IMG/VR virus record: IMGVR_UViG_3300031999_000132
Location: 1 to 32,024 of that record
Strand: one strand, 5' to 3'
Source of the DNA: a virus
Length of the DNA stretch: 32,024 nucleotides
Below are positions 764 to 32,024 of this stretch, piece by piece (positions within the stretch are counted from its first letter, which is position 1; each line of letters begins with the position of its first letter). Made by a program: the position numbers and the translations under genes. The notes under the pieces were generated by a model. That model saw only the letters and a program-made list of their open reading frames with translations, made no database searches and was not told the origin of the DNA.

Positions 764-906
764 GAAAATCTGTCGAAATTGAAAATGGCTCGACATGATT
801 TTCAAGGAGTCCTTTCAACTCCTGAGTGTTTTTACCACTTACGGACTCGACCAGAAATAGAGTCCGATTACCACTAACCCTGAACCATTACTGATTCACG
901 AATCAG
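764..906 (-). ncRNA. Candidate structured (omega-RNA-like) region 3' of the TnpB-like gene
   Basis: Four inverted repeats lie in a row directly downstream of the TnpB-like stop codon: 891-897/900-906 (overlapping the stop), 842-848/860-866, 805-810/818-823, and a long stem 764-776/790-803 broken only by a bulged base at 796. No U-run follows, so a simple terminator is less likely. In IS200/IS605 and IS607 elements the guide (omega) RNA is made from the 3' end of tnpB and the adjoining right end, which is this position. The stems are seen in the sequence. The RNA itself is inferred by analogy. Confidence 0.35.
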
Positions 907-2175
907 CCAGTGCCGTAATTCCCCAACACGGGAGTAAGGCACGGCGGTGTGACCGCTGGCGTTTTAATCTCAATTACCTTGTACAGATATTTGAGATAGG
1001 AGTAAGCCTTCACCGTGAGAGCAATCTTGAGGCCTCTTCCTGCAAGGTTCAGCTTCTTGTTCTCTCCCGGTTCCAACCTAACCCTTACTGTTTCTATAAT
1101 ACCCATACCGCGACGGCCTATCACTAACGCCGCTGCGGTATGCCTGTTCAATGAATACTGCTCCTGATACTTCAAGATCCCAACCTTGGAAGTAAAGGCA
1201 GGGTTAATCTTCTTAACTTCTACTCTGTACTTAACAGCCCTACGTTCAATAGCCTGAAGCAGACTCGCATAAATAAAATTGTGCTTCATCCTGTTAAACT
1301 TCCGAGACTTTGAAGGCTTCTTATTATTGAACTTCAAGTCCTCAAGGACAATACCCTTCTCCTTAGAGATGGCATAGTCCACAATCTTTACGGCCAGGGC
1401 TTCGATATCATTCTTTCTCTTTTCAAACCGGGTAAACTGAAGCCTGTCTGCATGGAGATAAAAGTGCTCCAGAAGGTTTCCATCCTGACCTATGTTTACC
1501 ACGGCCAATCCGTCAGGGTTAGTATCAATTCCTATAGCCCCGGACTCATACTTATAGTATGGTGAGGCATCTGGAATGGCTATGCCTATGAAGGCATAGA
1601 ATTTATTATCCCTGTACTTGATCCGAACATCATAGCATTCAGAGTTCAGATCAAACTCTTCCTGAAACTTCTCAGGGATATACAGGGTAAACATAAGGAA
1701 CTGCCGAGCACCTGGAAGTCCTACCCTTAGCTTATAGTCTTCCGGTGTCCTTATAACCCGTATGTTGGGGTTCCCTTGCTTGGTTACATCCCCACGAGAG
1801 TAAAGCTCTGAGTCCCTTACTGTATGCCACTCCTGTTTCGTTATAAGGCCGGATAGCATCCTACCCCAGGACTTCTTACCGCCGAAGATTACATGCTCTT
1901 TATCAATGCCCTTGGCCTTCAGGACAGCGTCTGCTATGTAACGCTGATTAAGTTTGGCCATGTAGAGAGGTTTGGAAGCCTTAACTACATCATTACCCTT
2001 CAGCCCATCCTTATGGATACGTTGGTAGGCGTACCGCATACAGGAAGACCAGTTCCTCATAAGCTGTTTGAGGGTTTCAAAATCCCCTGCATGGATGGTT
2101 CCTGTAATTACTTTATTCATAGGTTTTCTTGTTCAGGAAAAAATCAACAGGTTTCTTTAGGTTTCGACAGATTTT
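765..2175. mobile_element. Possible tnpB-only element bounded by 14-bp inverted repeats
   Basis: The 14-mer AAAATCTGTCGAAA at 765-778 is matched by its exact reverse complement at 2162-2175. The two copies enclose the TnpB-like gene and its downstream hairpins, giving a unit of about 1.41 kb. It sits neatly between two small operon genes, one ending at 2186 and the other starting at 748. No clear target-site duplication is seen. IS605-type elements normally lack terminal inverted repeats, so the boundary assignment is tentative. Confidence 0.4.
903..2120 (-). CDS. TnpB-like (IS605 OrfB family) protein, divergent RuvC-type nuclease
   Basis: The 405-residue protein carries RuvC-like motifs in TnpB order: GIDTNPDGLAV (D199), GIVLEDLKF (E260) and NRHTAAALVIGRRG (about 325-338). 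Canonical TnpB proteins are RNA-guided DNA nucleases with Asp-Glu-Asp at these sites and a CxxC...CxxC zinc ribbon before the last motif. Here the third position appears to be His327, and the segment from FTSKVG to YSLNRH is too short for a ribbon and has no cysteines. This resembles a divergent TnpB-related subfamily. No TnpA or serine recombinase lies nearby. The ATG at 2120 has a weak ribosome site. Activity cannot be judged: it may be a non-canonical nuclease, a nuclease-dead RNA-guided regulator, or a domesticated gene. Confidence 0.8.
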   Translation of the reverse strand: MNKVITGTIHAGDFETLKQLMRNWSSCMRYAYQRIHKDGLKGNDVVKASKPLYMAKLNQRYIADAVLKAKGIDKEHVIFGGKKSWGRMLSGLITKQEWHTVRDSELYSRGDVTKQGNPNIRVIRTPEDYKLRVGLPGARQFLMFTLYIPEKFQEEFDLNSECYDVRIKYRDNKFYAFIGIAIPDASPYYKYESGAIGIDTNPDGLAVVNIGQDGNLLEHFYLHADRLQFTRFEKRKNDIEALAVKIVDYAISKEKGIVLEDLKFNNKKPSKSRKFNRMKHNFIYASLLQAIERRAVKYRVEVKKINPAFTSKVGILKYQEQYSLNRHTAAALVIGRRGMGIIETVRVRLEPGENKKLNLAGRGLKIALTVKAYSYLKYLYKVIEIKTPAVTPPCLTPVLGNYGTG

Positions 2176-11940: not shown

Positions 11941-13311
11941 TTAGTCCTCCAAATCGTTTGACTTTGCAGAACCTCCTGCAGTGTCTTTGGTCTCGTGTGT
12001 CAATGTAGCCGTATCACCTGATTTATCATCAGGGCTAACGTCTTCAGGAGATACTGGTTTGATGGCGGGAGCCATTTCTGCTGCGGTTTTTAATTCGAAT
12101 TCAGTGTCCAGCAGATCAAACCTGTTTTGATAAAATTCTTTGGTATACTTGATACCCGTTTGTTCCAGGTAAACTGCCATTTGTGCATCGTCTTTGGTCG
12201 GGTTAGGCGGGGAGATCATCTGGAACTTGGGCTGATTACCAGCGGCAGGCCAGTTAAGCTCGTAGATCCAGCCTATTAGCGTATTGTAAACCATTTCTAT
12301 GATCTTGGTATCTTCGGATACGATATCATCACGGATGCCTCCATGTACCTTGGCTGCGGCAAAGCTTCCACCAGACTCATCCATTTTGGTGGTTAAGGTC
12401 TGGCCAAGGATTCCAATGGATATTTCCTCGTTCATCAGCTGGATATATTTATCATGTATATCCGAAGAAGATCCATCGTTCATTTTGAGAGCTTCAACTT
12501 TGAACTCGGACGGGTGTGCGATGATACCATCCTGCACGGTTGTATCCAACATGTTAATCATTTCCTGCACCCGTGCAGCCTGTGCGCCCAGAGGGTATTC
12601 AGCACGAAGCCATGGTGTCCCGTACTTCTCGACGAAGGCGCAATAAAATCTTAATCCGCTGTGTCTAAATTTTACTGGCCAATAGACTACTGACCCAAGC
12701 GGACGGCCGTATGGGCGTTCATAGGACGGGCGGTACCGGGGCATGATAAATTTATAGTTGGGTACGGGTACGCCTTCAATCTGATTCTCTTGTGTTAAGT
12801 AGCGCAGTTCATTCTCTTCATTAAAACGGAACCAGTTCGGGTCTTTGGGTGCGATAGCTTTTGGCAGGAGCATTCCGCCAGTAGATTCCCAGAGTACTTC
12901 GACAGGCTGATAGCCGAAGAACACAGCGTAAAGAATTTCGTGCATGATGTCGGACATCGGCCATCCATCCAGGATAGCTTTAATCGTGGTATACTGTCTG
13001 GATAAGCTGCCATTGCGATCCAGGGTCCAGTCCAGACTCAGAGTCCCTGCAATGCGCGACTCCATACAGCCATTAACATGTGCATCTTCCAGCAAGTATT
13101 TATACTCGCTGATTTCCCGCCCGATCTTCCGCAGCGTCTCGGATGGGTTTGGCAGATACCCCATGGTCTTGAAAAAGTCGAATGCTGTTTCGCGTGTAGC
13201 TATTTCCTGGCTGAGCCTGGTCGAGGACGGCGCAGCGAAGGTCATGGCACCACCAGACTGTAACGGAATCTGGATCATACGTTCAGGTCTGTATTTTTTA
13301 TAGCGTCCCAT
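11941..13311 (-). CDS. Portal protein (DUF935, Mu gp29-like)
   Basis: The 456-aa protein has the DUF935 pattern: an N-terminal segment with YLPNPSETLRKIG, a DAHVNGCMESRIAGTLSLDW block (about 76-95), FFGYQPVEVLWE, a central KYGTPWLRAEYPLGA segment, then LGQTLTTKMDESGGSFAAAKVH and a C-terminal acidic tail. Portals form the dodecameric ring at one head vertex through which DNA enters and leaves. The gene follows terL by one base, with TGGAG 6 bases before the ATG. The Ser/Asp/Lys-rich C-terminus (last 50 residues) is probably disordered. No MuF-type minor head gene follows, unlike Mu. Confidence 0.9.
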   Translation of the reverse strand: MGRYKKYRPERMIQIPLQSGGAMTFAAPSSTRLSQEIATRETAFDFFKTMGYLPNPSETLRKIGREISEYKYLLEDAHVNGCMESRIAGTLSLDWTLDRNGSLSRQYTTIKAILDGWPMSDIMHEILYAVFFGYQPVEVLWESTGGMLLPKAIAPKDPNWFRFNEENELRYLTQENQIEGVPVPNYKFIMPRYRPSYERPYGRPLGSVVYWPVKFRHSGLRFYCAFVEKYGTPWLRAEYPLGAQAARVQEMINMLDTTVQDGIIAHPSEFKVEALKMNDGSSSDIHDKYIQLMNEEISIGILGQTLTTKMDESGGSFAAAKVHGGIRDDIVSEDTKIIEMVYNTLIGWIYELNWPAAGNQPKFQMISPPNPTKDDAQMAVYLEQTGIKYTKEFYQNRFDLLDTEFELKTAAEMAPAIKPVSPEDVSPDDKSGDTATLTHETKDTAGGSAKSNDLED

Positions 13312-16548: not shown

Positions 16549-16932
16549 ATGTCTTATCAACTCAAGTATGATGCGAACAGCATCACAGGTTCTGCAGCCC
16601 AGGATTTTTCACTGATCACGGGTCCGGTGTTCATCGCAACGGACGCGACCAACCGTGCTATCGTCAGCACAGCCACAACGATTCCTGTTGGGATTCTGGA
16701 AAATGCTCCTCCTCTCGGTAGCATTTGCTCAGTCTCGTATGCGGGTATCACGAAGCTCACGGTTGACGGTTTGTATCCCAAAGGCACATTCCTTGTTCCG
16801 ACTTCGGTTGGTCTGGGCAAGGGTGTGGGCACGGATGCGACTTGCATTTACACGTATCCGTACATCAAGGCTGTCACGCTTGATGATTCAACGGCTGCCA
16901 ACGACATCGTTACAGTCCGGATTATCAATTAA
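16549..16932 (+). CDS. Head decoration-like protein (DUF2190-like)
   Basis: The 127-aa beta-rich protein resembles small capsid decoration proteins: SLITGPVFIATDATNRAI, then PVGILENAPPLGSICSVSYA and GITKLTVDGLYPKGTFL, with a C-terminal TAANDIVTVRIIN strand. AAGGAG precedes the ATG. It lies between scaffold and major capsid protein, the normal place for a decoration protein. Its core is clearly related to the first 120 residues of the collagen-like protein at 18044, so the two genes are paralogues. Trimeric binding to the capsid surface is the family expectation. Confidence 0.72.
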   Translation: MSYQLKYDANSITGSAAQDFSLITGPVFIATDATNRAIVSTATTIPVGILENAPPLGSICSVSYAGITKLTVDGLYPKGTFLVPTSVGLGKGVGTDATCIYTYPYIKAVTLDDSTAANDIVTVRIIN

Positions 16933-18043: not shown

Positions 18044-18883
18044 ATGTCTTCACAACAACAGTTCTTTGCCGAGAGTTTTCGCACCCCGCGTGTGATGACA
18101 GAGTACCCGCAAAGATTCATCCATATCGATAGTAATGGTTTAGTGGATCTGTGTCAAGCGGGCGAATATGCTGAAGGGGTGCTTGAAAATACAACGTCTG
18201 TTGCAGGCTGTCCTGTATCAGTATCATTTGTAGGTATTACAAAAATAACGGTTGATGGACCTTATGCTATTGGCACATATCTTATGTCGGGTGCGGATGG
18301 CATAGGCACGCAATCCACAGCGGGTAACCTGCAGTATAGCCGGGCCAAAATGCTTGAGGCTTCAGTCGCATCAGGAGATATTGTATCCTGTCGATTGCTT
18401 GATGACCAAATCGGTGGCGCTCAAGGAAGCACAGGCATTGTGGGTATAGGGGCCACGGGTATACGCGGCATGACGGGTATTGCTGGTATGACAGGTATTC
18501 AGGGTCTTGTTGGTTTGACAGGGCTTCAAGGTATAGATGGTCAAACAGGTATTCAAGGATTGACAGGAGAAACCGGGATACAGGGTCTTGTTGGTTTGAC
18601 GGGGCTTCAAGGTGTTGTTGGTTTAACCGGGCTGCAAGGCATGACTGGTATTCAAGGTCTTGTCGGTGAAACGGGGATTCAGGGATTAACTGGAGAAACT
18701 GGAATCCAGGGTCTTACAGGATTTTATGGACAAACCGGTATTCGAGGTCTTAACACCACGGCCGATCCTTGGGCTGTTGCAGCGACGTTGGGATCTGTGT
18801 CGGGCTGGGATTCTACGGCTGGCGTGTACTTTAATTTGTCAAGTGGTCAAACCGGAATATTTTATGTCCTGTATAATACCTGA
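18044..18883 (+). CDS. Decoration-domain / collagen-like fusion, putative head fibre
   Basis: Residues 1-120 are a paralogue of the decoration protein at 16549: YAEGVLENTTSVAGCPVSV and GITKITVDGPYAIGTYL align with its GILEN and GITKLTVDG blocks. Residues about 128-236 are Gly-X-Y repeats such as [19 protein letters not shown] with almost no proline. The last 40 residues (ADPWAVAATLG to the end) form a small beta-like head. The layout suggests a trimeric triple-helical fibre anchored on the capsid surface. Internal DNA repeats underlie the collagen tract, so its length may vary. It directly follows the capsid gene and its stem-loop. Confidence 0.8.
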   Translation: MSSQQQFFAESFRTPRVMTEYPQRFIHIDSNGLVDLCQAGEYAEGVLENTTSVAGCPVSVSFVGITKITVDGPYAIGTYLMSGADGIGTQSTAGNLQYSRAKMLEASVASGDIVSCRLLDDQIGGAQGSTGIVGIGATGIRGMTGIAGMTGIQGLVGLTGLQGIDGQTGIQGLTGETGIQGLVGLTGLQGVVGLTGLQGMTGIQGLVGETGIQGLTGETGIQGLTGFYGQTGIRGLNTTADPWAVAATLGSVSGWDSTAGVYFNLSSGQTGIFYVLYNT

Positions 18884-18891
18884 GGAATGGC

Positions 18892-19359
18892 ATGGCTTAT
18901 TGCACAACAGTCGATATCAAAAACTTTATACCCGCATCGGTCGTGCAGCAGTTGTCGGATGATAATGATGCCGACCAGATCGACGCAGAAAAAGTCACGT
19001 TCTGTACGCAACAAGCTGATGATCTTATTGACAGTTATTTGAGGGGACGGTATACGGTTCCTCTTGTAACTGTTCCTTCGATGATTCGGGACTTATCTGT
19101 ACGCGCAACGGTTTATTTTTTGTTTAAACGATCATTGTATACGGTATTGCCCGACCCGATAAAGGATGATTTCAACTACATAATAAAAACTTTGGAAGGC
19201 ATGCAGCAAGGCAAAATAAACGCATTTCCTGTGGGCAATGAGCCTGTATTTTTCGGGACTAACAAGGTTGATTCGGATCGAGTATTTACGAGCAAGGAAG
19301 TAACGGCCGGCGCTTTTAATGGAACTGGCCAGAACAGCTGGAGCGCATACCCGATATGA
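18892..19359 (+). CDS. Head-tail connector (DUF1320, Mu gp36-like)
   Basis: The 155-aa protein has the DUF1320 pattern: a start reading CTTVDIKNFIPASVVQQLSDD, an AEKVTFCTQQADDLIDSYLRGRY block (about 33-55), and PSMIRDLSVRATVYFLFKR (about 62-80). Such proteins bind the portal and prepare the neck for tail joining. TGAGGA lies 6 bases before the ATG. Its stop overlaps the start of a homing endonuclease gene (ATGA), whereas in relatives the next gene would be the gp37-like tail-terminator gene that now starts at 20032. Confidence 0.83.
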   Translation: MAYCTTVDIKNFIPASVVQQLSDDNDADQIDAEKVTFCTQQADDLIDSYLRGRYTVPLVTVPSMIRDLSVRATVYFLFKRSLYTVLPDPIKDDFNYIIKTLEGMQQGKINAFPVGNEPVFFGTNKVDSDRVFTSKEVTAGAFNGTGQNSWSAYPI

Positions 19360-20030
19360 TGTCAACTTTTATATATGCACTGTGTGACCCAAGAACTTTT
19401 GAAGTTAGGTATGTAGGTAAATCAGATGATCCTTATAAAAGATATTGTCATCACCTAATGGATAAAGCTAAAACTTATAAAGTAAATTGGATACAATCAC
19501 TATTAAAAGTAGGTTTATTACCCATTAGACAAATCCTGGAAGAGTGTGATAAATCAATATGGGAACAACGAGAACAAGACTGGATAAATTTTTACAAAAA
19601 AATAGGGTCTAATCTAACTAATATAGCTGATGGTGGTGTAGGAGGCTCAGGACACAAAGGAAAGCACCACTCTGAAGAAGCAAAAAGGAAAATAAAAGAA
19701 GCTAATTTAGGCAAAAAGATTTCTGAAGAAGTTAAAAATAAGATGAGAGGATCACATTTAGGTAGAAAATATAAGAGTATGACTCCCGAGGGTAGAAAGA
19801 ACATAGGATTATCAATGGTCGGGAGGCCGGGGCACAATGAAGGTAATCATGCCTCTAAAGAATCAAGATTAAAGATGAGTCTCTCTCACATAGGGAAAGA
19901 TAATCATCAAAAAGGAAGAAGCCCATCAGAAGAGATCCGAAAAAGAATTAGCGAAAGTTTAAAAGGTAGAAAACATGATAGCTCAAATAACAATATGACC
20001 CCCGTACTCGTGGGCGATAAGGTGATATAG
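19356..20030 (+). CDS. GIY-YIG homing endonuclease with NUMOD3 repeats
   Basis: The N-terminal nuclease domain (residues 1-95) has FIYALCDPRTFEVRYVGKS as its GIY-YIG block and an Arg/His pair in YKRYCHHL. WEQREQDWINFYKK and LTNIADGG complete the domain. The C-terminal half holds several NUMOD3-type DNA-binding repeats (HSEEAKRKIKEANLGKK and similar). It is a free-standing selfish endonuclease placed between two neck genes. Its AT-rich, Lys/Asn-rich coding differs from its neighbours, indicating acquisition. The 9-mer TATGATGTC occurs at both ends (19355-19363 and 20031-20039). Either ATG at 19356 or 19359 could start it. Confidence 0.88.
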   Translation: MMSTFIYALCDPRTFEVRYVGKSDDPYKRYCHHLMDKAKTYKVNWIQSLLKVGLLPIRQILEECDKSIWEQREQDWINFYKKIGSNLTNIADGGVGGSGHKGKHHSEEAKRKIKEANLGKKISEEVKNKMRGSHLGRKYKSMTPEGRKNIGLSMVGRPGHNEGNHASKESRLKMSLSHIGKDNHQKGRSPSEEIRKRISESLKGRKHDSSNNNMTPVLVGDKVI

Positions 20031-20031
20031 T

Positions 20032-20583
20032 ATGATGTCGGAGCTTCATGCTGCTTTAATTGATAATTTTAAGGCTAATGGTCTGGATGTGAGGGAGGTC
20101 GGATTCAAGGACTTGATAGATAAGACAATCAATCTGGACAGGCCGGCTGTAAATATTACGATTAATGAGGGAAGAGGAGCAAAAGTAACACTTAATACGT
20201 ATAAATGGATCATAACAGTCACAATAAATATTGTTTTTGCGCATTTGAAAGGCGGGTCAACAGGGGAAGCACGACGTAAAGAGGGGGTTTATAAACTGAT
20301 AGAGGCGATTACTCAGTATGTAATGTGCCAGAAATTTGGTTTAGAACTTGAGAATCCCCTTTTTCCAATGCGTTTTCGTAATATTACTTCCAGTGATCTT
20401 GCCAGAGCAGGGTTTCAGGTTTACGCTTTGGATTTTTGGGGGTCTTATAACACGACGTATGCTGATCCGGAGGATAAGGACATTGGGCAACTTAATAGTA
20501 TACTCAATCAATATTGGTTGATGCCTGGCGATTCGACAAGTATGCCGACAAGAGCTGAAGACATTTTAACTGTGGGACCATAA
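20032..20583 (+). CDS. Neck / tail terminator protein (Mu gp37-like, DUF1834)
   Basis: The 183-aa protein begins MMSELHAALIDNFKANGLDV and contains DRPAVNITINEGRGAKVTLN, an RKEGVYKLIEAITQYV helix and FQVYALDFWGSY near residue 140. Size, position after the gp36-like gene and before fibre and sheath genes, and the pattern of strands around a central helix fit the gp37-like tail terminators. The start codons ATGATG are recreated at the end of the homing endonuclease, and an AAGGTG within that gene's 3' end can serve as ribosome site. The assignment rests mainly on gene order. Confidence 0.62.
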   Translation: MMSELHAALIDNFKANGLDVREVGFKDLIDKTINLDRPAVNITINEGRGAKVTLNTYKWIITVTINIVFAHLKGGSTGEARRKEGVYKLIEAITQYVMCQKFGLELENPLFPMRFRNITSSDLARAGFQVYALDFWGSYNTTYADPEDKDIGQLNSILNQYWLMPGDSTSMPTRAEDILTVGP

Positions 20584-20587
20584 AAAT

Positions 20588-21745
20588 ATGAGCACCGAAC
20601 GAATACGTTTACCTGATGAAAAAATTAAAGGCGGAGCCTACATGGTGGTGACGCCATTAATTATGGCTACGGCCGGGCCTCAGGGCGTGCCAGGAATGAC
20701 TGGTGTTCAGGGTGTAACAGGTCTTTATGTTCCTTCGGGAATCCCTGGTGAAACAGGATTGCAAGGGGCACAAGGTGTGCAGGGTGATCAAGGTCTTATT
20801 GGCTCCACAGGAATAATAGGTCGTACAGGTATCGCGGGTGGAACTGGAATTAGTGGTGGTGCAGGTGGTAGCGGGGCGACGGGTATTCAGGGTATTACAG
20901 GTCTGCGTGGGAATACGGGATTGCAAGGTGTAACAGGATTCTACGGGCAGACTGGAATACAGGGTATTATTGGAAATCTCGGCCACACCGGTATCCAAGG
21001 TCTTGTGGGTCAGACTGGTATCCAGGGCTTGGGTCTAACTGGTTTGCAAGGATTGACCGGACTCCAAGGGCCGGGTATAATATCCGGCACTACTAATGCC
21101 CTTGCTAAGTTTACGGCCACTACGGTGCTTGGTGACTCGTCTGTTTCAGACAACGGAACTATCATCCAACTCAATAATAATGTTTACGCGAACGGGATAC
21201 TATCTATATCTGGCAGCCCGTTGCCGCAGGGTATTTTTAATGTCTTTAAAGACTCAACTAACGCCCTCGTGGCGGGTGTCCGAAAAAGTTGTGGCAATCA
21301 TGAGATTGGAACTGGTTGGCTGGAGAATACAACGAATTTTAATATCGAGTTGACCGGAAATGGCAAACTTGATTCAAGCGGAGTTTTAAATATTCTGCCG
21401 GAATTGACTTTAGATTCTGGCGATGCAAACAGAGTATGGCTTGGAAAAATTGAGCTCAGTGCTGTCGATGCAACCAATTCCGTTTCTGGTTTTGGTATTG
21501 TTGAATGTGGTGGTGCATTTACTGCCGGTGGTGTAGCAGGAGTACAAACCTTAGCTTTGCCGGTTTATTCGGGTTCTACCATTGCAATTACAGATTCGGG
21601 CGGGGCTATATGTGTGGTTGTCAATAGTAATCCATCAGCGACTACAAGTTCGTCCATCAAAATTAAAAATAATTTTGATGGTGTAGCTATTTTAACTTAT
21701 GCATTCCGTGGTTGTTTATGTGACCCAGCAACCATACCAGTATAA
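20588..21745 (+). CDS. Collagen-like fibre protein with C-terminal head domain
   Basis: This is a 385-aa fibre. Residues about 30-165 are Gly-X-Y repeats (for example GATGIQGITGLRGNTGLQG) with a few prolines near the start. Next comes GTTNALAKFTATTVLGDSS (167-185), a segment common at the base of phage fibre head domains. The C-terminal 190 residues are a Gly/Thr/Ser-rich beta domain. It shares the GFYGQTGI turn with the collagen protein at 18044. No ribosome site precedes the ATG at 20588. An in-frame ATG at 20642 has GGAG 8 bases upstream and is a possible alternative. A putative glycosyltransferase follows after two bases. Confidence 0.78.
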   Translation: MSTERIRLPDEKIKGGAYMVVTPLIMATAGPQGVPGMTGVQGVTGLYVPSGIPGETGLQGAQGVQGDQGLIGSTGIIGRTGIAGGTGISGGAGGSGATGIQGITGLRGNTGLQGVTGFYGQTGIQGIIGNLGHTGIQGLVGQTGIQGLGLTGLQGLTGLQGPGIISGTTNALAKFTATTVLGDSSVSDNGTIIQLNNNVYANGILSISGSPLPQGIFNVFKDSTNALVAGVRKSCGNHEIGTGWLENTTNFNIELTGNGKLDSSGVLNILPELTLDSGDANRVWLGKIELSAVDATNSVSGFGIVECGGAFTAGGVAGVQTLALPVYSGSTIAITDSGGAICVVVNSNPSATTSSSIKIKNNFDGVAILTYAFRGCLCDPATIPV

Positions 21746-21747
21746 TT

Positions 21748-22332
21748 ATGCGTCAAAAAGTAATCTCATTTTTGTATGATGAGGACAAAGATCTTGACAT
21801 ATACAGAGGCCTATATGAGCAGGTTTTGGCTTTACGTAAGATACCTGATTGGATTGACCATGAGGTCATCACAAAAAGGATATTGCCAAACAGGGGATAT
21901 GGTTATCGGACGCAGTCAGATATCGATCGCATAGCATATTTACAGATGCATCCAACTGCCTGGTACATTGATGCAGATGTAATACCTGATTTTGATCGGA
22001 TGATTAATTTTAAAATGAATCCTGGTTTTGTGTATATGTCCCGGCCCGGCCAGTTTGATTTTTGGGCGATTCTCGGAAATGGTTGTCAGAGTTATTTTGA
22101 TTTCTTGATGAATTATTATGAGTCAAAGGACAAAAATCCAAGGCCTTTGTGGCCGCATAAAATTATCAACAACGAACTGATCTATGAAACAAAGCCTGTA
22201 CCAAGAGAGTTTTTCAAGCATCTTCAGCTGAATGGTACAGGAAGATTGGCGATGGAGTCTGGCTTTAAAATATCTGGGCTGGGTTATCAGGTGCAATATA
22301 GAGACAAAAAATGGATGTTGAACATAAATTAA
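21748..22332 (+). CDS. Putative GT-A glycosyltransferase (DXD motif)
   Basis: The 194-aa protein has TAWYIDADVIPDFD at about 70-83. A DxD after a beta strand with an aromatic run-in is the hallmark of GT-A glycosyltransferases that bind a nucleotide sugar through a metal. Upstream, RGLYEQVLALRKIPDW and SDIDRIAYLQMHP resemble helices of the sugar-nucleotide domain. Downstream, FVYMSRPGQFDFWAILGNG and NNELIYETKPVP could form the acceptor side. It is shorter than most GT-A enzymes. It starts 2 bases after the collagen-like fibre gene without its own ribosome site, implying coupled translation. The obvious substrate is Thr in that fibre, but this is inference. Confidence 0.55.
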   Translation: MRQKVISFLYDEDKDLDIYRGLYEQVLALRKIPDWIDHEVITKRILPNRGYGYRTQSDIDRIAYLQMHPTAWYIDADVIPDFDRMINFKMNPGFVYMSRPGQFDFWAILGNGCQSYFDFLMNYYESKDKNPRPLWPHKIINNELIYETKPVPREFFKHLQLNGTGRLAMESGFKISGLGYQVQYRDKKWMLNIN

Positions 22333-22346
22333 CAAGGAGATAGATT

Positions 22347-23828
22347 ATGGCATCACCTTCGATTCAGTTTTCCACTATTCCCTCGAATGTGCGGAAACCC
22401 GGTGTTTACTTTGAGGAGAACGTCTCCAATGCTATCCAGGGGCTGGCACCTGCAAATGACAAGGTATGCCTTATTGCTCAGATGCTTGCCACGGGTACTG
22501 TTGCAGCAAAAACACCGACCAAAGTGTTTTCCGATGCCGATGCTCAGCTTTATTTCGGAGCAGGGTCGGTCGCGCATCTTGCCGCACGTAATGCAATCAT
22601 AGCCAATACTAATATCGATCTCACGGTTGTAGGTGTATCGGATCTTGGCGGTGCTGTGCAAGCAACAGGCAGTATTACAGTTGGATCAGTGCCGTCTACG
22701 GGTGGAACGTTATATGTATGGATTGGCGATGTCATGGGCACGATATCCTATAAGGGTACTGATGTGGCTACTGACATTGCCACGGCTATCGAAACGGCGC
22801 TTCTACCCTATAGCAATTTGCTTCCTGTTACTATGTCTCCATCCAGCAATGTGATTACTTTCACGGCAAAAAATGGCGGCACGGTTGGCAATATGATTTC
22901 TATCAGTACCAGTGACGCCAATGGTATCACATGGCTTACCACAGCGGCAATGTCGGCCGGAGCAGGTGATCCTGATGTCGGAGTATACAGCTCGGCTGGA
23001 ACAGTCCTTGCCTCGGTTACTGCAGGCGGATACACAATTTTTATCAATACTATACCGAACACGGCAGGAAGTTACGACAGCGCGACCAAAGTCATGAACA
23101 TGGTCGAGTTCGTCAGTGGTCCGCTTGAACAGCGACCAGCGATACAGGTTCTTTCAATGACCGAAATGAATGACACCTACGCCAATGCCAAGATTCTGGC
23201 CGGGACCAACCTTAATCATGGTCGCACGACTTTGACCTGGTTGGATTATACTTCAGACAATCTGGCCAAGACGGAATATTTCAAAATCGCAGGCGGATAC
23301 GCGGGCGTGCTCGCATCCAGCAATGATCCTGCAGTACCGTACGATGGGCTGGTTATTACAGCCGTTGCTCCTCCCGCGGTTATTGACAGGCTCACCAGGA
23401 CAGAGCAAGAAGACTTGCTTAATAATGGCGTAACCCCGCTTTACGTCGTACCTGGGGAACAGGTTGCGGTTGTACGCGCAGTGAGCACGTATATCACCAA
23501 TAGCCTGTCTATTCCGGACCCGACCTTGCTGGACATCAATACCATTCGCACTCTGGATTATGTCCGAGCTCAGATCAGGACTCGATTGTCTCTGCGGTTT
23601 GCCAGGACTAAACTCAGTCCTCGCATTCTTAAGAGCATCAAGTCGGAAGTTATCGACGTGCTGTATTTGCTCCAGGGTCTGGAGATAGTCCAAAACGTCG
23701 ACACATATAAAGCGGGTGTCATCGTTGAAGTCGATAATAGCGATGCCACTCGGGCGGACGTCAAAATCCCGAGTAATATCGTCAGTGGCTTGCACGTAAT
23801 TGCGGGCGTCATCGTATTGGTTCTTTAG
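22347..23828 (+). CDS. Tail sheath protein (Mu gpL-like)
   Basis: The 493-aa protein begins with the sheath signature VRKPGVYFEENVSNAIQGLAPA and has NDKVCLIAQMLATGTV, a central variable domain (about 100-290) and the conserved C-terminal core: NNGVTPLYVVP, VAVVRAVSTYIT, RTLDYVRAQIRTRLSLRFAR and EVDNSDATRADVKIPSNIV. This marks the phage as contractile-tailed. The sheath surrounds the tube and drives injection. AAGGAGA lies 7 bases before the ATG. Codon use is GC-richer than in the tape-measure and baseplate genes. Confidence 0.93.
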   Translation: MASPSIQFSTIPSNVRKPGVYFEENVSNAIQGLAPANDKVCLIAQMLATGTVAAKTPTKVFSDADAQLYFGAGSVAHLAARNAIIANTNIDLTVVGVSDLGGAVQATGSITVGSVPSTGGTLYVWIGDVMGTISYKGTDVATDIATAIETALLPYSNLLPVTMSPSSNVITFTAKNGGTVGNMISISTSDANGITWLTTAAMSAGAGDPDVGVYSSAGTVLASVTAGGYTIFINTIPNTAGSYDSATKVMNMVEFVSGPLEQRPAIQVLSMTEMNDTYANAKILAGTNLNHGRTTLTWLDYTSDNLAKTEYFKIAGGYAGVLASSNDPAVPYDGLVITAVAPPAVIDRLTRTEQEDLLNNGVTPLYVVPGEQVAVVRAVSTYITNSLSIPDPTLLDINTIRTLDYVRAQIRTRLSLRFARTKLSPRILKSIKSEVIDVLYLLQGLEIVQNVDTYKAGVIVEVDNSDATRADVKIPSNIVSGLHVIAGVIVLVL

Positions 23829-31084: not shown

Positions 31085-32024
31085 ATGTCTTTAGTCAATC
31101 CTGTTAACTTTACCATTTTTAATCAGGCGATTCCAACGGGGCAACTGCCGATTGTCGAGATAACATCGGATGCAATGGCGTATGGGACAGTAGTTTATGA
31201 TCTGCCTATTCCCACGGCTACTACACTTACGGCAAATGTTTATCGCGTGGCGGCACCGACATCAGCTGAGGATCGTTGGGCCCGCATTCAGCCCGACTTG
31301 CTGCCAGGATTTCCAAATTGTTTGTACTTTACCTATAAACAGCTTTACGGTGATCAGTGGCAAATCGATTGGCAATTTACTCCTGTCGAACTTACGCCTG
31401 TCTATAATCTTGATGCCTACAGTATAGAGTTTTTTATTAACTCGTCGATACTTGCGGCTACGCCTCAGGCCACAGCCAAGATTATCGTTAAGATAAAAAA
31501 TTCCATCGACTATACTGGACAAACGGGTATTCAGGGTTTTACAGGATTGGATAGTGTTTATCGTGGTGAAACGGGGGTATCCGGGGTTACAGGTTTGCAA
31601 GGTATCACTGGTCTCCACAATATGGTGGGCTCAACGGGTATTTGTGGAGTTACGGGTTTACAAGGCGTCACTGGTCTGCAGGGGCGAACAGGTATACAGG
31701 GATTGGTTGGTGGTACGGGTATATCAGGCGAAACAGGTATCCGAGGCATGACAGGGATACGAGGATTACAGGGTTTAACGGGCGTCTATGGTAATACAGG
31801 TATTCAGGGTAGTACGGGTATCAAAGGTACCACAGGCATCAAAGGTACCACAGGAATTGAGGGTAACACAGGTATCCAAGGTGGTACAGGAATAAAAGGT
31901 TCGACAGGTATCAAAGGTTCGACAGGTATTGAAGGCAATACAGGCATACAAGGCCAAACAGGCATACGCGGAAAGACAGGTATAGAAGGTATTACGGGTT
32001 TACAAGGGCCGACAGGTATTCAAG
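31085..32024 (+). CDS. Collagen-like tail fibre, truncated at window end
   Basis: An open frame starts at the ATG at 31085 (GAGG 7 bases upstream) and runs off the right edge without a stop, giving at least 313 residues. The first 140 residues are a non-repetitive beta-rich domain, presumably the baseplate attachment. From about residue 141 the sequence is Gly-X-Y with a strong hexapeptide rhythm, G-I-x-G-x-T (for example [17 protein letters not shown]). Thr occupies the Y position of every second triplet and Gln, Lys, Glu or Arg that of the other. Its place after the gp47-like gene is where Mu has gp48 and the fibre S. No gp48-like gene is seen. Confidence 0.8.

What the first reader, a model, noticed from the sequence alone, without database searches (positions are those of the whole stretch)
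20588..22332. Glycosyltransferase-like gene coupled to a collagen-like fibre
A short protein with a GT-A type DxD (WYIDADVIPD) starts 2 bases after a fibre gene built of Gly-X-Y repeats with frequent Thr in the Y position. Known cases make a link plausible: BclA of Bacillus spores is glycosylated on Thr of its collagen tract, and Riftia cuticle collagen is stabilised by galactosylated Y-position Thr where proline is scarce. The phage tracts here have very little proline, so sugar on Thr could replace proline as the stabiliser or mask the virion. Coupling and motif are seen; the modification is inferred.
Basis: partly seen in the sequence, partly recalled or inferred. Interest (0 to 1): 0.78.

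Follow-up and report, generated by a model that had tools for sequence, protein, structure and literature searches.

The report
Phage collagen fibre with possible glycosyltransferase
A virus of bacteria carries a gene for a collagen-like fibre followed two bases later by a small gene that may encode a sugar-attaching enzyme; the pair sits together as an extra block in the tail genes, but whether the enzyme really decorates the fibre is untested.

Summary
At 20588-21745 lies a 385-aa collagen-like fibre gene (39 uninterrupted Gly-X-Y triplets; Thr in 33% of Y positions; Pro 3% in X, 5% in Y), and 2 bases later a 194-aa ORF with WYIDADV (DAD at 21970-21978). New here: the 194-aa ORF is the only gene of its 19-gene cluster without a Shine-Dalgarno match (TAA-tt-ATG, so probably translated by coupling to the fibre), and fibre plus ORF form a block absent from the nearest relative (L003) and from Mu-like phages SuMu and ST405-OXA48phi1.1, where only one or two small genes separate the gp37-like and sheath genes. 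Whether the protein is a glycosyltransferase is not settled. It has no relative in any collection searched, no Pfam/PHROG/NCBIfam match, and AlphaFold failed twice (pLDDT 36 and 40). A DxxR...DxD stretch resembles GT32 locally (1/250 shuffles, 0/250 unrelated ORFs), but true GT32 proteins score 3-6 times higher. I rate a GT-A enzyme at about 0.65, and fibre or virion glycosylation as its job at about 0.4. Thr-rich, Pro-poor tracts are common in bacterial collagens, so composition is not evidence for sugar. Closest precedent: C. difficile SgtA-BclA3.

The parts
20588..21745 (+). Collagen-like fibre gene, 385 aa
   Evidence: Pfam Collagen E 2.4e-15, PHROG tail fibre families
20675..21034 (+). 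Gly-X-Y tract (residues 30-149, one short break), 39 triplets, Thr 33% of Y, Pro 3% X and 5% Y
21080..21742 (+). C-terminal non-collagen domain of the fibre, no relative found in the phage collection
21746..21747 (+). Two-base gap between the fibre stop (TAA) and the ATG of the next ORF; no Shine-Dalgarno match upstream of that ATG (anti-SD duplex +0.7 kcal/mol; -3.1 to -12.3 for the other 18 genes)
21748..22332 (+). 194-aa ORF, putative minimal GT-A-like glycosyltransferase
   Evidence: local profile resemblance only; no family match
21916..21930 (+). SDxxR motif (S57 D58 I D R61) preceding the DxD, as in GT32/GT8-type GT-A enzymes
21970..21978 (+). DAD (D75-A-D77), candidate metal/sugar-nucleotide motif
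20032..20583 (+). Left flank: Mu gp37-like gene
   Evidence: Pfam Phage_Mu_Gp37 E 2.2e-07
22347..23828 (+). Right flank: tail sheath gene
   Evidence: Pfam Phage_sheath_1C E 2.1e-13
18044..18883 (+). Second collagen-like gene: decoration-protein-like N-terminus (resembles the 16549-16932 product) plus 34-triplet tract (18449-18754); possible further substrate
31085..32024 (+). Third collagen-like gene after baseplate J, runs off the contig end; Thr 48% of Y; possible further substrate

Best explanation
Fibre (20588-21745) and 194-aa ORF (21748-22332) form a two-gene accessory cassette that occupies the slot between the gp37-like and tail sheath genes of a Mu-like contractile-tail phage. The downstream protein is most likely a small soluble DxD glycosyltransferase of GT-A type, translated by coupling to the fibre and therefore made in smaller amounts, while the virion proteins are made. 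It most likely transfers a sugar from a nucleotide sugar to hydroxyl side chains of the co-made fibre, with Gly-X-Thr of the collagen tract the obvious acceptor and the two other Thr-rich collagen proteins possible further substrates. The sugar would add hydration and stability to a Pro-poor triple helix or change the virion surface. Shown: gene order, spacing, missing RBS, presence/absence of the block, tract composition. Suggested: GT-A-type motif. Inferred: enzyme activity, acceptor, benefit.
For: Two-base gap and no RBS. The block is absent in L003 (67% identical capsid protein; gp37-like ends 12583, sheath starts 12744 with one ORF of about 54 codons between), in Klebsiella phage ST405-OXA48phi1.1 (DUF2635 gene only) and in SuMu (two small genes). 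Residues 38-88 align in the DxxR...DxD register with a GT32 profile of 21 proteins gathered without reference to this motif: score 22.9, 1 of 250 shuffles and 0 of 250 unrelated phage ORFs higher; same register in four jackknife subsets. No base-hypermodification genes seen in the window. Precedent: SgtA, encoded immediately upstream of bclA3 in C. difficile, puts beta-O-GlcNAc on Thr of the collagen region (PMC7157674). Other phage collagen fibres with a GT directly beside them: L055/L103 and L061 (GT1) and L019 (GT2-like).
Against: True GT32 proteins reach scores of 67-152 in leave-one-out tests; this one reaches 21.6-24.6 over about 45 residues. No similarity to an unbiased phage GT2 profile. 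No relative in viral, phage, plasmid or bacterial genome collections, so no conservation of the motif can be shown. Both structure models are unusable and the fold search returned nothing. The survey gives no proof of enrichment: four or five of 88 ORFs beside collagen genes are GTs, but at least 2 of the 86 control ORFs are too. Thr in Y is ordinary.
Confidence: 0.4

Rival explanations
1. The 194-aa protein is not a glycosyltransferase but a fibre accessory protein (assembly chaperone, capping or attachment protein) or an unrelated moron; the DxD is coincidental.
For: Genes just downstream of phage fibre genes are often assembly chaperones (general knowledge: T4 gp38, lambda Tfa, Mu U). No family, no relatives, no fold. 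The DxD pattern alone arises in 4.3% of shuffles. Coupled translation also suits a chaperone.
Against: No Pfam match, so not a recognised Caudo_TAP/Tfa-type chaperone. The fuller DxxR...DxD register beats chance.
Confidence: 0.33
2. It is a glycosyltransferase that modifies the host surface (for example O-antigen), excluding other phages; its place next to the fibre reflects the host-recognition region.
For: In pelagimyophages, GTs clustered with tail fibres were interpreted this way (PMC7029224).
Against: Single small soluble protein without the membrane partners of known seroconversion cassettes (general knowledge); it lies inside the tail operon, coupled to a virion protein, which suits late timing, when exclusion matters less.
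Confidence: 0.17
3. It is a DNA-modifying glycosyltransferase protecting the phage genome.
For: Phages do carry such enzymes; a D12-type adenine methyltransferase gene is in the window.
Against: No hydroxymethyl-pyrimidine synthesis or other base-hypermodification gene seen in the 32 kb; the gene sits in the tail operon, not with replication genes. The window is a fragment, so absence is not proof.
Confidence: 0.04

Closest known systems
C. difficile SgtA-BclA3 (collagen-like spore glycoprotein and adjacent glycosyltransferase)
   Same: A GT gene directly beside a collagen-like gene with Thr acceptors in the collagen region; metal-dependent transfer onto Thr is shown there (PMC7157674).
   Different: sgtA lies upstream of bclA3; bacterial spore, not virion. 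Sequence kinship with the window protein was not tested; modification is not shown here.
Mimivirus L230 (collagen lysyl hydroxylase / glucosyltransferase)
   Same: A virus-encoded enzyme that modifies virus-encoded, proline-poor collagen-like proteins (PMC9614988).
   Different: Bifunctional 895-aa protein acting on hydroxylysine; giant virus of amoebae; no hydroxylase is seen here.
Virion glycosylation of mycobacteriophages Che8, Corndog and Myrna
   Same: Phage-encoded GTs that glycosylate virion proteins (PMC12363180, citing Freeman 2023).
   Different: Targets are capsid and tail tube, not collagen fibres; no sequence relation shown.
EPclA/EPclB phage collagen-like proteins of E. coli O157:H7 prophages
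   Same: Collagen-like phage tail proteins.
   Different: Pro in about half of X positions; recombinant unglycosylated EPclA already melts at 42 C (PMC3368898), so sugar is not generally needed; no coupled GT described.
GT32-type (Pfam PF04488) and phage GT2-type GT-A glycosyltransferases
   Same: DxxR...DxD register (GT32); W[FY]IDAD[VI][VI]P strand (phage GT2).
   Different: Resemblance limited to about 45 residues; family-level similarity absent.

Membership tests
Phage collagen-like tail/virion fibres | Uninterrupted Gly-X-Y repeat tract in a virion fibre protein | tested here: met
   Pfam Collagen E 2.4e-15, 56.5 bits vs cut-off 27.2; PHROG tail fibre families; virion location itself not tested
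GT32 / Pfam PF04488 Gly_transf_sug | Sequence match to the family model | tested here: not met
   No Pfam match up to E 10; 8% hhalign probability against 97-99.7% for true members in leave-one-out
GT32 / Pfam PF04488 Gly_transf_sug | D-x-x-R helix followed by DxD strand | tested here: met
   S57-D58-I-D-R61 ... D75-A-D77; aligned in register
Phage GT2-type GT-A (TRARN...FIDAD...SED) | Profile similarity along the domain, with ARN, DxD and ED motifs | tested here: not met
   Unbiased profile: score 17.8, 10/200 shuffles higher, wrong register. A motif-selected, hence biased, profile gave 46% over 32 residues. No clear ED motif; AMES at the nearest place
GT-A fold in general | Rossmann-like nucleotide-sugar fold | tested here: inconclusive
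   AlphaFold pLDDT 35.9 and 39.6; fold search best E 2.4
SgtA-BclA-type collagen glycosylation pair | Glycosyltransferase gene next to a Thr-rich collagen-like gene | tested here: inconclusive
   Adjacency and Thr in Y met; GT nature not established
SgtA-BclA-type collagen glycosylation pair | Sugar on Thr of the collagen tract | not testable with these tools
   Needs mass spectrometry
Tail fibre assembly chaperones (Caudo_TAP/Tfa type) | Match to a chaperone family model | tested here: not met
   No Pfam match up to E 10, no PHROG match up to E 0.1

The most novel reading that the evidence does not exclude
A bacteriophage carries its own dedicated collagen glycosyltransferase, of an undescribed minimal GT-A type, acquired as one unit with a collagen fibre and translationally coupled to it, that O-glycosylates Gly-X-Thr in a nearly proline-free triple helix.
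Probability: 0.3. Interest if true: 0.7.

Novelty: new variant of a known kind. Interest (0 to 1): 0.42.

Why it matters
Many phage and bacterial collagen tracts have few prolines and no hydroxyproline, and how such triple helices hold together is an open question; sugar on Thr is one candidate. A phage fibre with its own coupled enzyme would be a compact two-gene system in which to test this, and would add a fibre target to the known capsid and tail-tube glycosylation of phages. If the protein is only a chaperone or an unrelated moron, the interest is small.

Tried and rejected
Relatives by pattern scan plus tblastn in viral and bacterial genome collections, and tblastn in phages and plasmids: none. 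Degenerate DxD patterns in viral contigs: a WYIDADV pattern and a DxxR...W[YF]xDxD pattern gave nothing; W[YF]xDADxxP gave phage GT2-type proteins, later judged too biased by motif selection to serve as proof, and an unbiased GT2 profile did not confirm the link. 119 genomes of one bacterial phylum: only two weak hits, one with an internal stop, both unconvincing on inspection. AlphaFold alone and with a 13-row GT2 alignment: unusable; Foldseek on it meaningless. GT/collagen adjacency as a general rule: not shown, because the control ORFs also contain GTs. Thr richness as evidence for glycosylation: rejected as ordinary composition. DNA-glucosylation reading: disfavoured.

Full report
What is there. 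The window is the whole of a 32,024-base virus record, a fragment of a Mu-like contractile-tail phage: Mu I-like protein (weak match), decoration-like protein, major capsid protein, Mu gp36-like, Mu gp37-like, tail sheath and baseplate J in order. The fibre ORF 20588-21745 and the 194-aa ORF 21748-22332 lie between the gp37-like and the sheath gene. The fibre stop is TAA at 21743-21745, two bases follow, then ATG. The fibre has a short N-terminus, a Gly-X-Y tract at residues 30-149 with one short break, and a C-terminal domain without detectable relatives in the phage collection.

Tract composition. Thr occupies 33% of Y positions and no X position; Pro 3% of X and 5% of Y. The two other collagen genes of the window have Thr in 44% and 48% of Y and practically no Pro. 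It is not special: bacterial collagen-like proteins average 31.6% Thr in Y, and a hydration network of polar residues is the usual explanation of stability (PMC8968730). In 116 phage contigs that I fetched with a Thr-containing pattern (a biased sample), median Thr in Y was 50% and a quarter had under 2% Pro.

Coupling. Anti-Shine-Dalgarno pairing in the 22 bases before the start was computed for 19 consecutive genes: all but one fall between -3.1 and -12.3 kcal/mol; the 194-aa ORF has +0.7. With the stop two bases upstream, re-initiation by ribosomes leaving the fibre gene is the simplest way it can be translated. Codon preference in frame is like that of the other tail genes, though the difference from the other frames is small, so it is probably but not demonstrably a real gene.

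A cassette. In the nearest relative found, L003 (capsid protein 67% identical), the gp37-like gene ends at 12583 and the sheath gene starts at 12744, with one ORF of about 54 codons between. Klebsiella phage ST405-OXA48phi1.1 has a DUF2635 gene there, Haemophilus phage SuMu two small genes. Fibre and 194-aa ORF are thus present together or absent together in the four phages compared (one with, three without). A free-standing GIY-YIG/NUMOD3 endonuclease gene (19356-20030), also absent from L003, ends about 560 bases upstream of the fibre and may have helped movement (inference).

Is the 194-aa protein a glycosyltransferase? Against: no match in Pfam (up to E 10), PHROGs or NCBIfam, no relative by sequence anywhere searched, no usable model with or without an alignment, nothing in the fold search. 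A hydrophobic-DxD motif by itself occurs in 4.3% of shuffles, and the very similar W-Y-x-D-A-D-V-x-P occurs in what read as GH36 alpha-galactosidases. For: residues 57-77 read S-D-I-D-R-...-Y-I-D-A-D, the order D-x-x-R then DxD of GT32/GT8-type enzymes (general knowledge). Against a GT32 profile of 21 proteins found through PF04488, and so not chosen for this motif, hhalign aligns residues 41-86 in that register with score 22.9, beaten by 1 of 250 shuffles and 0 of 250 unrelated phage ORFs; an earlier profile of 7 proteins gave 6 of 400 shuffles and 5 of 370 other ORFs. Four jackknife subsets keep the register. But true GT32 members left out of the profile score 67-152 with 97-99.7% probability, against 8% here. 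It is therefore not a GT32 member by sequence. A test against phage GT2-type proteins looked better (46%, 0 of 200 shuffles), but those proteins had been selected by the same DAD motif; with four GT2-type proteins not so selected the signal vanished. I take GT-A type as plausible, about 0.65, on motif, context and size.

Generality. Among 88 ORFs of 140-420 aa next to phage collagen genes, Pfam finds GT1 in three (L055 and, by its near-identical start, L103, one lineage; L061) and a GT2 domain in one; L019 has a GT2-like ORF 53 bases before a collagen ORF. L061 shows fibre followed by GT1 beside what look by eye like a methyltransferase and another GT. The control of 86 other ORFs of the same contigs includes at least two GT2-type proteins (L051:8314, L120:9851), and only the first 25 of its 62 families were shown, so enrichment is not demonstrated. 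These are parallels, not proof.

How it most likely works. The fibre is made as a virion protein; the enzyme is made from the same message at lower level and, in the cytoplasm, transfers a sugar from a nucleotide sugar to Thr of the fibre before or during triple-helix assembly, as SgtA does for BclA3 peptides of C. difficile (PMC7157674). Because collagen chains are modified before they fold in the known systems (PMC8968730, for animal collagen), coupled synthesis next to the nascent fibre would make sense. The other two collagen proteins could be modified too. Benefit (stability, masking) is open. All steps after gene order and motif are inferred.

Verdict. Observation confirmed; coupling strengthened; enzyme plausible; substrate and benefit untested. 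Novelty, if true, is a phage version of a known bacterial arrangement.

Noticed in passing
window 903-2120 (-): 405-aa TnpB-like protein of the IS605/RNA-guided nuclease kind (NCBIfam TIGR01766 above cut-off, NF040570 E 4.7e-16 below cut-off) without a TnpA seen nearby.
   Followed up: no
window 19356-20030 (+): Free-standing GIY-YIG endonuclease with four NUMOD3 motifs between the gp36-like and gp37-like genes; absent from L003, where those two genes overlap.
   Followed up: partly
window 16549-16932 and 18044-18883 (+): Two copies of a decoration-type protein flank the capsid gene; the second carries a 34-triplet collagen tail (possible capsid fibre). L003 has the same second copy with only a short Gly-X-Y end.
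   Followed up: partly
window 31085-32024 (+): Third collagen-like gene, after baseplate J, cut by the contig end; Thr in 48% of Y positions.
   Followed up: partly
L061:2-6102: Collagen fibre of 1144 aa followed by a GT1 gene, beside ORFs that look by eye like an FkbM-type methyltransferase and a further glycosyltransferase.
   Followed up: partly
L139:510-1785: A collagen-carrying phage record with a GT25-type gene (Pfam E 4.5e-11; GT25 includes collagen galactosyltransferases, from general knowledge) next to a GT32-like gene, about 20 kb from its collagen gene.
   Followed up: no
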